38,597 bases of DNA. It comes from Prasinococcaceae sp. CCMP 1430. Its lineage: Eukaryota; Prasinodermophyta; Palmophyllophyceae; Prasinococcales; Prasinococcaceae. Numbering within the stretch: position 1 is the stretch's first letter; each line of letters begins with the position of its first letter. Below the pieces are notes generated by a model. It searched no databases and was not told the DNA's origin. It saw only the letters and a program-made list of their open reading frames with translations. Made by a program: the position numbers and the translations under genes. Below are positions 9,945 through 38,597 of the stretch, one piece after another. The stretch covers positions 144,813 through 183,409 of the forward strand of contig RQSC01000007.1 of the NCBI GenBank assembly GCA_013416795.1, in the 5' to 3' direction.

Positions 9945-10079
9945 CGTGTGTGTGCGTGTGTGTGCGCGTGTGTGCGTGTATGTGCGTGTGTGTGCATGTG
10001 TGCGTGTGTGTGGTGCGTGTCTGTTCGTGTGTGCGTGTGTGTGCGTGTGTGTGCGTGTGTGCGTGTGTGTGTGCGTGTG

Positions 10080-10120
<41 letters not shown>
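9945..10120. repeat. GT / GTGCGT microsatellite
   Basis: About 176 bases of alternating GT with interspersed GC steps, ending in a pure GT tract of about 36 bases. Alternating purine-pyrimidine DNA of this kind can adopt Z-form. It ends exactly at the palindrome starting at 10121. Confidence 0.95.
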
Positions 10121-10593: not shown

Positions 10594-11343
10594 TGGGGAG
10601 GTTTCAACAAGTGTGACCCGCAACCGAATCCGAGTGGCGGTTGGTTGGTTTGGGGGAACATACCGTACATCATATCGGTTTGCGCGACGCACGCGACGCT
10701 GGCGCTCGCGGCGCCGCGCCGCGCGGACGCAGAGTCCAAGCCCTTCTGCGACTGGACCCAGACGCTGCCGTGCGAGCTGCTCCATAGCGGGGACGGGTAC
10801 ACGCCGATGCCCGGCTTCGAGACGGGCGCCCTCTACAGGGAGCTGCGCATCGGCGAGGGCGACGCCCCCTCCGTCGGCGACAAGGTGTGCTGCGACTGGG
10901 CGATGTACACGTTCTACCTGAGCCACGTCGTCAGCGCGAGGGGCCTCACGAAGGGCGGTGCCTTCGAGGGCGACGACGTCGACGCGACCTTCCTGCGCTT
11001 CACGCTGGGCGACGGCTCGATGATCGGCGCCGTCGAAGGCGCGCTCCTCTCGGGCATGCGGGTGGGCGGCGTGCGGCGCGTCATAATCTTCCCGGGAGCG
11101 GCGAGCTACCCGGGCATGCTGCCGAACGACAAGGGAAGGAATTGGTCGCAGCTCGGGCCGGCTCCGGAGACTCTCAGCGGCAGGCGGTCTCTGGACTTTG
11201 TGGCCAAGAACACTGCCAACGTCGACAAGAGCCTGCTGATGGACATCGAGCTGCTCGGAGTTGGCGAGGGGGCGCGCGCCGTGCGCGGACCCGGCGCGTG
11301 GACGCCCGAGGCGCTCGCGGCGGCAAAGACGGGCTCGTTGTAA
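10594..11343 (+). CDS. FKBP-type peptidyl-prolyl isomerase, 5' end unresolved
   Basis: FKBP domains catalyse cis-trans isomerisation of proline bonds. The domain is seen in LYRELRIGEGDAPSVGDKV, then FTLGDGSMIGAVEGALLSGM and GGVRRVIIFPG, then a C-terminal VDKSLLMDIELLGV strand. A hydrophobic Ala-rich stretch before residue ESKPFCDW looks like the end of a signal or transit peptide. The frame opens after a TGA (10591-10593) and has no ATG before the domain. The true start is therefore in an upstream exon that I could not place, and 10594 is only the limit of the open frame. The domain is divergent, with two adjacent cysteines (VCCDWAMY), like lumenal FKBPs of algae. The gene converges on the disulfide isomerase with 84 bases between stops. 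Confidence 0.72.
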   Translation, partial: WGGFNKCDPQPNPSGGWLVWGNIPYIISVCATHATLALAAPRRADAESKPFCDWTQTLPCELLHSGDGYTPMPGFETGALYRELRIGEGDAPSVGDKVCCDWAMYTFYLSHVVSARGLTKGGAFEGDDVDATFLRFTLGDGSMIGAVEGALLSGMRVGGVRRVIIFPGAASYPGMLPNDKGRNWSQLGPAPETLSGRRSLDFVAKNTANVDKSLLMDIELLGVGEGARAVRGPGAWTPEALAAAKTGSL

Positions 11344-11427: not shown

Positions 11428-12203
11428 CTACTTGAGCTCGTCCCTGAGCTGCGTGAGGATGGCGTGCCTCTGGTTCACCCACGCCTTCAACTCGGCGGTC
11501 ATGACGTCGCCCTTCACCTTCTGGAGCCTCGCCTCCTGCGCGGCGACCTTGACTGCGCCGGCCTTGCGCATCTTCGCGATATACTGGGCCTCCCTGCTGG
11601 AGCAAGTGCTCTCCGCATCGGCCACGGAGCAACGAGCGCCGAGCTCCTCCTTGACGAACTCGCGCAGGTCGACGATGTTGCGGCCGCCGGTGTACTTCTC
11701 GCCCTCGGGCTTGTCCGAAGTGAAGTACATCACGGTCGGGTAGCCGCTCACGTCGAACCGCGAGCAGAGGTCGTTCTGTCGCGCGGAGCCGCGCCAATAG
11801 CAGCACGCACGAGAGCGTCAGCACGCGCACGCGCGGCGCAGTGTGGCGACCAGGGGCAGATCGTCAGAAGCGGCGACCACGCCCGCGCAGGCGCCGATCG
11901 GCAGCGCACGGCGAAAGGGATGGCCCACGGCGCGCGCGCGCACTGGCTCGCACCTGCTCCGTGCAGTCGACGTCGCCGATGAGCACACTGTTGGAGTCGG
12001 CCATCTCCGCACCGAGCTCATCCCACGCGGGCTTCATCGCCTTGCAGTGGCCGCACCAGGGAGCGAAGAACTTCACGAAGGCGCTCTTGCCGCCCGACAG
12101 CGCGAGCTCGTCGAAGTTCCCCTCGTCGAGCACCGTCACCGCCGCCGCGCGGGGCGCCGCGCACGCGAGCGCGAGCGCGCACACCGCCGCGCACGCGAGC
12201 GCG
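11428..12203 (-). CDS. ERp38-like protein disulfide isomerase (thioredoxin + ERp29C domain), 5' end in gap
   Basis: An oxidoreductase of the ER lumen. Exon 1 (12203-11954, open into the gap) holds a hydrophobic Ala/Leu signal-like stretch, then [14 protein letters not shown] and the thioredoxin active site [12 protein letters not shown]. After a 178-base intron (GTGCGA donor, two CTGAC sites) exon 2 (11775-11428) continues [18 protein letters not shown], joining as [12 protein letters not shown]. The second half ([20 protein letters not shown] to QRHAILTQL) fits the ERp29 C-terminal helical domain. The protein ends RDELK: an RDEL retrieval-like tetrapeptide plus one lysine. The start codon and the signal peptide start are lost in the Ns. 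The gene is divergent from the EF-hand protein across the gap. Confidence 0.85.
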
Positions 12204-12393
12204 NNNNNNNNNNNNNNNNNNNNNNNNNNNNNNNNNNNNNNNNNNNNNNNNNNNNNNNNNNNNNNNNNNNNNNNNNNNNNNNNNNNNNNNNNNNNNNNNN
12301 NNNNNNNNNNNNNNNNNNNNNNNNNNNNNNNNNNNNNNNNNNNNNNNNNNNNNNNNNNNNNNNNNNNNNNNNNNNNNNNNNNNNNNNNNNNNN
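12204..12393. other. Assembly gap (190 N)
   Basis: Unknown bases. They hide the start of the disulfide isomerase gene and part of its divergent promoter. Flanking sequence is a CG-rich repeat (gcgcgcacaccgccgcgc type), which probably caused the gap. Confidence 1.
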
Positions 12394-35049: not shown

Positions 35050-38000
35050 CTAGCGAAGCTCGTCCTTGGCGTCCTCGGACCCCTCCTGCCCCTCGCCCGC
35101 CGCCGGGTCTTCCTCGCCCGCGGGGGCATCGACGTCTGCTGCGCCCTCGACGCCCTCGGCGCCCTCGGCGCCTGCCTGCCCCCCCTCATCGGCGCCGCCA
35201 TCCGAGGCCGCCGTGTCACCCCCCGCCGCACTCTCGCCCTCGCCCTGGCCCGCCGTGGCCTCGCCCTCGGCCTTGTCGTCGGTGGCGTTGGTCTTGGTGG
35301 CGTTGACCTTGGCCTTGGGCGGCTTAGGCTTGGGCGTCGCCTTGAGGCGATCGAAGCGCTTCTGAAGGGGCGCCACCCGCTCGGCAAGCTCGTGCACGCG
35401 GTATGCCGGCTCCTCAAGCAGGCTCCTCTCTTCCTGCTCGGCGTTCTTGTTAGCCACGAACTCCTCAAGCGCCTCGACGTCCTCGAGAAGGTTGGCGATC
35501 TTCGTCGCGTTGATGTATGGCTTCGACTCGGGCCACTGCGTGAGCGACTCCTTCGATTTGGTGATCCACTTGTTGACCGCCTTGAGGGCCGCTGGCCGCG
35601 CCTGCATCTCGTTCAGCCGCTCGAAGATGGCGTCACCGGTCTTCTTGAGCTCAGCCAGCTTGTCGACGAAGGCAGTGGATGGCTCGTCGGCACCGTCCAT
35701 GTACAGCCAGTCCTCGGCGTCGGTGAGCGCCTCGATGAACACCTCGCGCTCCTCTTCAGAGCTGACGTCGAACACGCCGCTGTCCTCGTCGCGCATTTTG
35801 GAGCGCGTCTCGATAGCGTACGCCTCGAGCTCGTTCTTGGCCGCCGCGGTGGCAAGCTTCTCCAAGTCAGCATCGTTGAGCTTCCTCATGGTTTCCTTCG
35901 CCGCCTCCATCGTCGGCGCGTCCAGCCCGGCGTACTGCATTGGGCTGATCTCGATCCTGAGCTGGGGCTTGAAGGTCTTGTTCTTGGCTTTGAGCTCGTA
36001 CTTCGGGGCCGCCGGCTTCTCCTCGGCGGGCTTCTCGCCCTCCTCCGCGGGCTTGTCGCTCTCCTCGGCACTCTTGTCGGCCTCGGCCTCCTCGGGACCC
36101 TTGGCGGCGCCCTCGTCCTCCAGCAACTTGCGGGCAGACGACGTCTCTGCGGCGGGGTCCTCGGCGGCGTCCGCTCCCTCCTCAGTCGCCTCGGTGGCTT
36201 CGTCTCCTTCGGCCTTGGCGCCCTCCTCCTCGGCCGCCTTGGTGCCCTCCTCGGCCTTGGCTTTCTCCTTCTTCGGCGCCTTCTCCTTCTTGGCCTTGGG
36301 CGGCTTGATGGTCACATTGACCATCTCCACCACCTCGACGATGGCCTCGGCCTTGTTGAGGCTCACGAGGCCGTAGCGATCGACACCGAAGTGCATCTTG
36401 ACCTTGGTGATGTTTGCAGACTCGTACTTCGGCGTCGGCAAGCGGTCGCCTCCCAGGGTGTACTTCTCCTGGACGTCGGCCATGCCGCTGACGTTGAAGC
36501 CCAGGGATTCGGCCTTGGCGACGCCCGGCGGCAGCTGAACGTCCTCCGCCGAGGGTTCGCCGTACTTGATGGTGGTGATGGCGTCCTCGCCGGTGAACGG
36601 CAGGCTGACCACGCGCTTGTTGGGAAGCACCTTGAGCGGGGGCAGGAACGAGCTGTCCTCCTCGCCCTCCATGCTGATCGTCATGGGGTACGTGGTAACG
36701 TCGTTCAGGCCGAACGGACGCATGCGGAAGGTGGTCGAGAGGTTGGCGGCGTACAGCGCCGTGCCGAAGACCACGGCCTCAGCTGAGTCCAGGTGGCGGT
36801 CGAGATCGCGGCCGCCCAGGGTCTTGGAAAGCTCCTCCACGACGCGCGGGATGCGAGTTCCGCCGCCGAGCAGCTCGATGTTCTCGATCATGTCCACGGT
36901 GACGCCAATTTCGCTCGCACGCTCGAGTACGCGCTCGAGGGGCGCCGCGACGCGCGCGAACAGATCGGCGCACAGCTCATGGAACTTGGGCGGGTTGATG
37001 GAAGACCTGAGGTCGGTGTCCTCATAGATGGCCTCGACGTTGCAGGGGGCGTTGACGTTGGCGGTCAGAGACAGCACCTCCTTGGTCTTGGCCACCTCCT
37101 TGCGCATCTTGCCCATGGCCCTCGGCACGGTGCGGATGTCGACGCCCCCCAGCATCTTCTCGTGCTTCGCGTTGAATTCCTGCGCGAAGTGGTCCATCAG
37201 GCACACGTCAAAGTCCTCGCCGCCCAGCGCCTCGTCCCACTCGATGGCGCGCGGGACGAACTGGCCGACGCTCTTCTTGGTCGAGCCCTTGCCGGTGGTG
37301 TACGAGTTGAACTCGTACAGCGCGGCCCAGGTGTTGGTGGCGCCCATGTCGTAGAACACCACGTGGGTCGTCTCCTCGAACTTCTTATCGATGCCGTACT
37401 GGAGCGCCGCGGCGCTCGGCTCGTTGAGCAGGGCGAGCACGTTCATGCCCGCGATCTCAGCGGCGTCGAGCAGCGCCACGCGGTGCTCCTGGCCGAAGAA
37501 TGGCGGCACCGTGAGCACGGCGTCGCGAATTTCGGACTTGGCGTGCTCCTTGGTGAAGTCGAGGACATAGTGGAGCATTGACGCCATCATCTCCTCCGGC
37601 GCGAACGACTGCCCCCCTTCGGCGTTGAACACAGGGACGCCGCGCTCCTCGTCGGCGGTGATGTTGTAAAAATGGAAGGTGTCCGCGTACTTTGCCACCA
37701 GCTCCTCGCTGAACCCCTGGGCGAGCGCGTCGCGCACGCGCTCAAACACGAGGTTCGGGTACCGCGGCGCGATCGCCTTGGCCTCCTCGCCTGCGAGAAG
37801 CCAGGCACGCGCGCGGGTCAGCGTGCGCCACGCCGCTCGCCGCCTCGGTCGACCGCGCGCCGATCAGCACACCGATCGAGTGCGCGCCGCGCAGAGCGCG
37901 CGCGCGCGACGCACCCAGGATGCGCTCGCCCTTGCCCTTCGAGAAGGCCACCACCGCCGGGGCTTTTCTCTTGCCCATCTCATTGAGGACGATGTCGATC

Positions 38001-38140
38001 GGGGTCTTGCCTGGCTTTACGACGCACGCCTTGAGGTTCTGCCCGCCGACGTCTACGCCGATCACCGCCGGGCGCGCCGCCGGCACCGCCGCGAGCAGCG
38101 CAGCCGCGAGCAGCGCCGTGCGCGCGCGCGCGCGCGCGCT
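35050..38140 (-). CDS. HYOU1: ER-lumen HSP70 of the GRP170/HYOU1 (Lhs1) class
   Basis: A large ER chaperone and nucleotide-exchange partner of BiP. Two visible exons (38140-37915, 37790-35050) give about 988 residues. The 124-base intron (GTGCGT donor, CTGAC) is in phase 1 and restores ERILG|EEAKAIAPRYPN. A hydrophobic Ala/Leu signal peptide ends at about AARPA, followed by VIGVDVGGQNLK (phosphate 1). AVLTVPPFFGQEHR, VFYDMGATNTWAALYEF and ENIELLGGGTRIPRVVEEL follow. A beta domain, a long Glu/Lys/Ala acidic insert (KPAEE-type repeats) and an alpha domain complete the GRP170 layout. The protein ends AKDELR: a KDEL tetrapeptide plus Arg. No ATG is in frame just before the signal peptide. An ATG in another frame at about 38179 is separated from it by a CG dinucleotide run and a TAG, so an indel or an upstream exon is likely. 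Confidence 0.88.
38119..38139. repeat. CG dinucleotide run at start of HSP70 signal peptide
   Basis: About ten CG units coding for alternating Ala-Arg just before the hydrophobic signal core. A length error here would shift the frame and could explain the missing start codon. Confidence 0.8.
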
Positions 38141-38597
38141 ACGCCGGCCGGGCCTCGGCGCCCGGTCGGTCGGCGCCCATCCGTTTCGATGTGCGCGCGA
38201 CACCGACACCGACCCACACTCAATTTGATCACCGGATCTCCTGGCTGGACGCACGGCTGATGCTGACCTGACTGAATCCCCTGCCGGTCTGTCTGTCTGT
38301 GTGGTGTGGTGCACCTCGAGCTCTTCTTCAGTCAGGTCAGGTCTCGCGAAAAGCCTGCGACGGCGAGGCTGCGACTGGCTGAACACCCGCGCGCTGTGGT
38401 CTTGCAAGCTCCGACCGACAGTTGCTGCTGCTCCTCCCCCGGCGCACGGTCCCGCGCAGGCGAAATGCCGTTTTTGATCCGATTTTGGGCGGACGCGCTG
38501 CCGCGGCGGCGGGGGCGGCGCGCGGTACCGTCCGTGGCGGTGCAGCGAGAGCCGCCTCGGCCGAGCGCGGCGAATTGGCGGAATCGCGCGGTGCGCC
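38141..38597. other. HSP70 5' flank to window end
   Basis: No further gene is recognised. The open frame runs on to an ATG at 38407 but gives about 100 non-signal-like residues, so I treat it as leader. TCTGTCTGTCTG (38288-38299) and TCAGGTCAGG-type short repeats are present. TTTTTGATCC (38471-38480) matches the motif at 22423-22432 in reverse. I looked for an ER-stress element (CCAAT-N9-CCACG) and saw none. Confidence 0.4.

What the first reader, a model, noticed from the sequence alone, without database searches (positions are those of the whole stretch)
11428..11445. A second, unrelated ER protein ends in RDEL plus one basic residue (RDELK)
The disulfide isomerase ends L-R-D-E-L-K-stop (AGG GAC GAG CTC AAG TAG). 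It is unrelated to HSP70 and 24 kb away, but has the same design: basic-DEL-basic. Two of two ER-lumen chaperones in the window sharing this makes chance erosion unlikely and suggests a modified retrieval signal or a processing step that exposes DEL.
Basis: partly seen in the sequence, partly recalled or inferred. Interest (0 to 1): 0.75.

Follow-up and report, generated by a model that had tools for sequence, protein, structure and literature searches.

The report
Chaperones with a capped ER-return tag
In an unnamed alga-like genome, two unrelated protein-folding helpers end in the standard 'send me back to the endoplasmic reticulum' tag plus one extra basic residue, which should hide the tag unless an enzyme trims it off, a trick known from toxins.

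Summary
On the minus strand a thioredoxin-fold disulfide isomerase ends RDELK-stop at 11428-11445, and a GRP170/HYOU1-like HSP70 ends KDELR-stop at 35050. The whole 24.5 Mb assembly has DEL[KR]-stop at 7 places; I judge 3 coding: these two and a GH99 enzyme (GDELR). About 0.05-0.11 coding [KRHD]DEL[KR] ends are expected under a rough composition model; two are seen, both in ER-type proteins. Raw DNA pattern counts show no excess. It is not the genome's general signal: 5 of 7 ER-type ends read finish in leucine (HDEL, KDEL, KEEL, ASEL). The canonical KDEL receptor keeps the residues that grip the free carboxylate, so direct recognition of RDELK is unlikely. The best surviving mechanism is a masked signal unmasked by a basic carboxypeptidase. 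That is documented for yeast K28 killer toxin (HDELR, trimmed by Kex1 in the trans-Golgi), and this genome encodes a carboxypeptidase-D-like enzyme. Unmasking is inferred, not shown. Erosion by stop loss, with retention by other means, is a nearly equal rival, and conservation could not be tested.

The parts
11428..11445 (-). codons for R-D-E-L-K and TAG stop of the disulfide isomerase
11428..11775 (-). exon 2 of the disulfide isomerase: second half of the thioredoxin domain plus a C-terminal region without a Pfam family
   Evidence: exon boundary inferred from the AG acceptor and homology
11776..11953 (-). intron (GT..AG), inferred
11954..12203 (-). exon 1, visible part: hydrophobic signal-peptide-like core and W-CGHC motif; start codon not seen (N run 12204-12393)
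35050..35067 (-). codons for K-D-E-L-R and TAG stop of the GRP170/HYOU1-like HSP70
35050..37590 (-). main open frame of the GRP170/HYOU1-like HSP70 (part of the HSP70 domain, acidic insert, C-terminal region)
37742..38596 (-). open frame holding a 5' exon of the HSP70: hydrophobic core shortly before IGVDVG; start codon not seen

Best explanation
The two proteins carry a masked ER-retrieval signal. Each tail is an ordinary [K/R]DEL signal capped by one basic residue. While the cap is present the KDEL receptor cannot bind, because it reads the free carboxylate of the final leucine. A lumenal basic carboxypeptidase in the Golgi, most likely the carboxypeptidase-D-like enzyme encoded on contig C92, removes the cap and exposes RDEL or KDEL, and the receptor then returns the protein to the ER. 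Shown here: the tails, their rarity, that the two coding [KRHD]DEL[KR] ends found sit in ER-type proteins, a canonical receptor gene and a fitting carboxypeptidase gene. Inferred: that the tails are cut, where, and that retrieval follows.
For: Tails and rarity. Single other residues after DEL (CTN leucine only): 24 true-stop matches besides the 7 K/R ones, all 24 fetched. I judged 4 of 24 coding: a tRNA-synthetase anticodon domain (Pfam) and, by eye, a SANT/Myb-like, an ST13-like and an unassigned protein. None looks secretory to me. Of the 3 coding K/R ends, 2 have hydrophobic N-terminal segments; the third is GH99, recalled as an ER/Golgi enzyme family. Receptor: L048 keeps R47, Y48, D50, E117, W120, Y158, R159, Y162, W166 and R169 (my numbering of the alignment; roles from PMC8248988 passages). 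Amidating the carboxylate abolished KDEL binding and cut HDEL binding about 100-fold (same passages). Cutter: the L118 frame matches duck carboxypeptidase D (E 1.4e-57), including the Asp after the N-Y motif, which I recall as the basic-specificity residue, and has a C-terminal hydrophobic segment. Human CPD is a trans-Golgi enzyme that cuts C-terminal Lys and Arg (PMC5683605 passages). Precedent: K28 toxin HDELR is unmasked by Kex1p in the trans-Golgi, and the Arg is said to prevent early retrieval (PMC5735513, PMC13211469, PMC5666379 passages). A bacterial exotoxin's terminal Lys is removed before KDEL-receptor binding (PMC4584936 passages).
Against: Only two clear carriers, 23.6 kb apart in a 24.5 Mb assembly, which the model does not explain (proximity by chance about 0.002). 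BiP uses an unmasked HDEL. Bare DNA pattern counts lie below the reversed-pattern controls (3 v 10, 18 v 49). No conservation test was possible: the two usable relatives found outside the genome (viral-contig PDIs) end KTEL without a cap. A basic cap is a cheap product of stop loss. The residue before the cap affects CPD cutting; leucine there was not checked. The CPD-like gene's own signal peptide was not identified; its specificity and location are inferred.
Confidence: 0.42

Rival explanations
1. Eroded signals. Ancestral KDEL/RDEL ends gained one codon by stop loss in front of a second stop, or by a small insertion. The receptor no longer reads them; the proteins stay in the ER by other means (recalled: GRP170 binds BiP; some PDIs are held by their C-terminal region) or partly leak.
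For: AAG-TAG is one base from TAG-TAG; CGC-TAG is two steps from TGA-TAG, one of them synonymous; CGA-TAA of the GH99 gene is one base from TGA-TAA (codons; arithmetic mine). BiP and two other PDI genes keep leucine-ended signals. No sign of a genome-wide system.
Against: Stop loss should give many residue types and mostly longer tails. Among the 4 DELX ends with non-basic X that I judged coding (of 24 true-stop matches) none looks secretory. Longer extensions were not searched. CGC is not a one-step product.
Confidence: 0.36
2. For the PDI the resemblance is coincidental: RDELK is the end of the C-terminal region and a true tail was lost.
For: The paralogue and viral relatives continue about 5-7 residues past a similar segment before ending KEEL or KTEL; without gaps RDELK lines up with that segment (reading by eye). 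Another alignment puts RDEL over KEEL with K overhanging, so alignment does not decide.
Against: Two ER-type proteins both ending [KRHD]DEL[KR] is improbable (1e-7 to 1e-6 for 50-150 ER proteins, rough model).
Confidence: 0.1
3. A receptor variant reads the five-residue signal directly, for example the divergent second ERD2 paralogue.
For: A second PF00810 gene exists (L049, contig C90).
Against: By the alignment L049 has E117R, Y158S, Y162S and R169Q, and R169 mutants lose binding; L048 is canonical.
Confidence: 0.06
4. Sequence, assembly or gene-model error: the real protein ends in DEL or elsewhere.
For: No transcript data; there is an N run in the PDI gene.
Against: Two separate genes with different codons. 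I saw no splice pair that turns DEL into a stop (by eye). Codon-position GC of both frames is high at third positions up to the stop. The window has the same composition as the rest of the assembly sampled.
Confidence: 0.06

Closest known systems
Yeast K28 killer toxin beta subunit (HDELR, unmasked by Kex1p)
   Same: xDEL plus one terminal basic residue that hides the retrieval signal
   Different: Here the carriers look like resident chaperones of the cell, not an exported toxin; no processing has been shown; the candidate enzyme is CPD-like, not a clear Kex1
Bacterial exotoxin A type: terminal lysine removed before KDEL-receptor binding
   Same: KDEL-like signal capped by lysine
   Different: Cut outside the cell, presumably by host plasma carboxypeptidases; a foreign toxin
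Canonical K/HDEL-ERD2 retrieval
   Same: The DEL core with K or R before it; canonical receptor in the genome
   Different: Leucine is not the last residue
GRP170/HYOU1 and single-thioredoxin PDI families
   Same: Domain layout of the two proteins, as far as seen
   Different: GRP170 orthologues as I recall them end NDEL/HDEL; the sister PDI here ends KEEL
Animal carboxypeptidase D
   Same: Catalytic domain plus the following small domain aligned to duck CPD; C-terminal hydrophobic segment
   Different: One catalytic domain seen instead of three; location unknown

Membership tests
Canonical KDEL-type ER retrieval signal | [KHR]DEL core at the C-terminus | tested here: met
   RDEL and KDEL present, one residue from the end
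Canonical KDEL-type ER retrieval signal | Leucine is the last residue, with free carboxylate | tested here: not met
   One further codon, AAG or CGC, before the stop
Canonical KDEL-type ER retrieval signal | Protein enters the ER | tested here: inconclusive
   Hydrophobic cores at both visible N-termini; no signal-peptide program run; start codons not seen
Masked retrieval signal as in K28 toxin | xDEL followed by one terminal basic residue | tested here: met
   RDELK and KDELR
Masked retrieval signal as in K28 toxin | Basic-specific lumenal carboxypeptidase in the same cell | tested here: inconclusive
   CPD-like gene present; specificity and location inferred. Two S10 enzymes were compared with PDB: one closer to cathepsin A (2.2e-49 v Kex1 1.4e-29), one nearly undecided (1.8e-25 v Kex1 2.2e-22); the other S10 loci were not examined
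Masked retrieval signal as in K28 toxin | Terminal basic residue is removed and the exposed signal is used | not testable with these tools
   Needs MS or reporter work
Protein disulfide isomerase domain (TIGR01126) | Score over curated cut-off | tested here: met
   113.3 against 107.2 bits
ERp29 C-terminal domain PDI (PF07749) | Pfam match in the C-terminal region | tested here: not met
   No match for the window protein; the contig C44 PDI does match
GRP170/HYOU1 (lumenal HSP110-type HSP70) | HSP70 domain closest to the HSP110 group, signal peptide, acidic insert | tested here: inconclusive
   Best PDB match Sse1, hydrophobic N-terminus, acidic insert; no orthology tree made

The most novel reading that the evidence does not exclude
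A eukaryotic cell uses carboxypeptidase-gated ER retrieval for its own chaperones: selected folding helpers (a GRP170 and a PDI) leave the ER with a capped KDEL signal, work or wait in the Golgi, and are called back only after a carboxypeptidase-D-like enzyme removes the cap. On this view the toxin trick copies or parallels a cellular sorting step.
Probability: 0.3. Interest if true: 0.8.

Novelty: new variant of a known kind. Interest (0 to 1): 0.5.

Why it matters
If the caps are removed in the Golgi, ER residence of some chaperones would be set by a protease rather than by receptor affinity alone, and a masking device described for toxins would have a cellular counterpart. The idea is testable with two tails, one receptor and one enzyme. 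If instead the tails are eroded, they are a natural case of chaperones kept in the ER without a readable KDEL signal. In the open-access library searched (listings) the masked xDEL signals I saw described were in toxins; of the 7 papers listed I opened passages of 2, and most subscription papers are not held, so this is no proof of absence.

Tried and rejected
Rejected: a genome-wide modified signal (BiP, PLA2G12-like, other PDIs and calreticulin end otherwise). Rejected: splice variants that place a stop right after DEL (none seen by eye). Rejected: the window coming from another organism (tetranucleotide distance and GC like 72 loci of the assembly, a few of which overlap the window; L054 of the GH99 gene is among the six most distant). 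The E-E-L plus one residue (K, N, R, S, Q, H) variant was scanned as a further control: 28 matches (reversed pattern 52), 6 with a true stop; the 4 with K or R were read and 1 looks coding, TRAPPC2L-like by my reading. GRP94 was looked for: two HSP90 matches, ending MEEVD and VDAEIV.

Against or beside the reading: of the 8 K/HDEL true-stop ends, all read, 3 are of secretory type (BiP, ERp29-domain PDI, PLA2G12-like). The others are an amidohydrolase, a WW-domain-like frame, two frames without known family (one had no Pfam match; one was not scanned) and one that looks spurious. Of the 10 other true-stop matches, 7 were fetched and 3 were not.

Led nowhere: HSP70 relatives in viral contigs; wider PDI scans gave the same two viral loci plus one MAG locus, used only as an outside comparator; no Rfam family reached its threshold for the paralogue; papers opened without a relevant passage. 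The organism was not identified; 'alga-like' rests on the Sec-type single-thioredoxin PDI.

Limits: a frame was called coding by eye from open length, codon-position GC and homology; borderline frames (for example L085, L100, L106, L070) could be judged otherwise. The scan for non-basic residues used CTN leucine only. Tails longer than one residue after DEL, and uncapped RDEL ends, were not scanned. Of 33 thioredoxin matches 30 loci were fetched; a scan of frames in the 52 loci then held showed retrieval-type ends in three PDIs; most thioredoxin loci were not followed to their true ends. The gene count used for expectation is assumed. No signal-peptide program was available.

Full report
What is there. 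The 18 bases at 11428-11445 read, on the minus strand, AGG GAC GAG CTC AAG TAG, so the protein ends R-D-E-L-K. The frame runs back through a 115-residue exon. A 178-base GT..AG intron (inferred) joins it to an exon with a hydrophobic signal-peptide-like core and the active-site motif W-CGHC. The start codon is not seen; a run of N lies there. The joined protein exceeds the curated cut-off for a protein disulfide-isomerase domain. Its C-terminal region has no Pfam family, so it is not shown to be the ERp29-domain type. The comparison protein is a large HSP70 whose best solved relative is yeast Sse1. It has an acidic insert, a hydrophobic segment just before IGVDVG and the end K-D-E-L-R-stop. 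I read it as GRP170/HYOU1-like; no tree was made.

Is it more than chance? The window lies in a 24.5 Mb assembly of 145 contigs. DELK followed by TRR occurs 3 times there, 2 with a true stop; DELR followed by TRR occurs 18 times, 5 with a true stop. The reversed patterns occur 10 and 49 times, so the bare DNA patterns are not in excess. Of the 7 true stops I judge 3 to end coding frames: the window PDI, the window HSP70 and a GH99 enzyme (Pfam E 3.7e-53) on contig C9 that ends GGGGDELR and shows no clear signal peptide. The other 4 are frames of 7, 26, 32 and 375 residues that look spurious by length or codon-position GC. With the composition of nine window ORFs and an assumed 6000-12000 genes, 0.27-0.54 coding DEL[KR] ends are expected against 3 seen, and 0.05-0.11 coding [KRHD]DEL[KR] ends against 2 seen. 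The model is rough: it expects 0.15-0.31 K/HDEL ends, while 8 true-stop K/HDEL matches exist, of which 3 are of secretory type and about 4 of the others also look coding; their N-termini were not examined. As a further control, DEL plus any one residue (CTN leucine) gave 72 matches, 31 with a true stop. Seven of these are the K/R ones and all 24 others were fetched. I judged 4 of these 24 coding, and none looks secretory.

What do other ER proteins of this genome use? Ends that I read: BiP HDEL, an ERp29-domain PDI KDEL, a PLA2G12-like protein HDEL, a second single-thioredoxin PDI KEEL and calreticulin ASEL. With the two window proteins that makes 7; 2 of 7 carry the extra residue and 5 of 7 end in leucine. 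Most of the 33 thioredoxin matches were not followed to their true ends, so this is a sample.

Can the receptor read it? Published work reports that the free carboxylate of the last leucine is handed along R169, R5 and R47, and that amidating it abolished KDEL binding (PMC8248988, passages). The canonical receptor gene here (L048) keeps R47, Y48, D50, E117, W120, Y158, R159, Y162, W166 and R169, and an upstream frame shows the R5/H12 segment (by eye). The second PF00810 gene has E117R, Y158S, Y162S and R169Q. Direct reading of RDELK is therefore unlikely.

Could the cap be removed? This is a documented device. In yeast K28 killer toxin the HDEL signal is masked by a terminal arginine that Kex1p removes in the trans-Golgi; the stated purpose is to avoid early retrieval (PMC5735513, PMC13211469, PMC5666379; passages read). 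A bacterial exotoxin likewise loses a terminal lysine before receptor binding (PMC4584936, passages). The genome has 8 M14 matches, two of them neighbours on one contig. The best, on contig C92, matches duck carboxypeptidase D at E 1.4e-57. The zinc-site and catalytic positions and the Asp of the N-Y-x-x-D stretch, which I recall as the basic-specificity residue, are kept in the alignment (by eye), and there is a hydrophobic C-terminal segment. Its own signal peptide was not found. Human CPD is a trans-Golgi enzyme; its second domain works best at mildly acidic pH and cuts C-terminal Lys and Arg, with the preceding residue also mattering (PMC5683605, passages). Of the S10 loci two were compared: one is closer to cathepsin A than to Kex1, the other nearly undecided.

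Homologous tails. The paralogue on contig C73 and two viral-contig PDIs end KEEL and KTEL. Alignments disagree on whether RDEL of the window protein sits over these signals or over the preceding segment. So descent of RDEL from a retrieval signal is likely from the statistics but not shown by alignment.

Judgement. Three readings remain in play: a masked, processed signal (0.42), eroded signals (0.36) and a coincidence in the PDI (0.10). The masked reading explains why exactly one residue, and a basic one, follows an intact DEL in two unrelated proteins. Erosion explains why only two proteins show it and why codons near stop codons are seen. Neither explains why the two lie 23.6 kb apart (about 0.002 by chance); a foreign contig is made unlikely by composition. 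Conservation across relatives would decide, and no close orthologue of either gene was within reach.

Noticed in passing
L032 (contig C73:667439, own genome): Sister single-thioredoxin PDI with an in-frame TGA exactly at the first Cys of the active site (W-TGA-GHC) and a KEEL end: probably a selenocysteine PDI like Emiliania huxleyi EhSEP2, which has one thioredoxin domain and a UGHC motif (PMC6254913 passages). No Rfam family, SECIS included, reached its threshold in the 3.2 kb.
   Followed up: partly
L125:4893-5558 and L126:4881-5558 (IMG/VR contigs): Two related viral contigs encode a single-thioredoxin PDI with a hydrophobic N-terminus and a KTEL end, about half identical to the window PDI over the thioredoxin domain.
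   Followed up: partly
L071 (contig C3:297275, own genome): An amidohydrolase, dihydropyrimidinase-like by my reading, ends GDAKDEL, an odd place for a KDEL end if the enzyme is cytosolic.
   Followed up: no
L075, L076, L077 (contigs C73 and C79, own genome): Three further frames end KDEL-stop (a WW-domain-like frame, a short frame, a 328-residue frame without Pfam family); whether they enter the ER is unknown.
   Followed up: no
L079 (contig C11:172136, own genome): Calreticulin ends GGHDASEL, not K/HDEL.
   Followed up: no
L054 (contig C9:60067, own genome): GH99 endomannosidase-like protein ends GGGGDELR; its first visible exon starts close to the catalytic domain without a clear signal peptide.
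   Followed up: partly
L049 (contig C90:44390, own genome): Divergent second KDEL-receptor family gene with R169Q and Y162S.
   Followed up: partly
own genome, contigs C43 and C79: Two HSP90 matches were found, ending MEEVD and VDAEIV; no GRP94 seen. The assembly may be incomplete.
   Followed up: no
window 9945-10120 and 10807-11343: Long GT-rich simple repeat upstream of an FKBP-like ORF (by eye) whose stop lies about 85 bases from the stop of the PDI on the other strand.
   Followed up: no
own genome, C46:20826-21362 and C136:112005-112541: Two thioredoxin loci of identical score on different contigs, probably a duplicated or haplotypic stretch.
   Followed up: no
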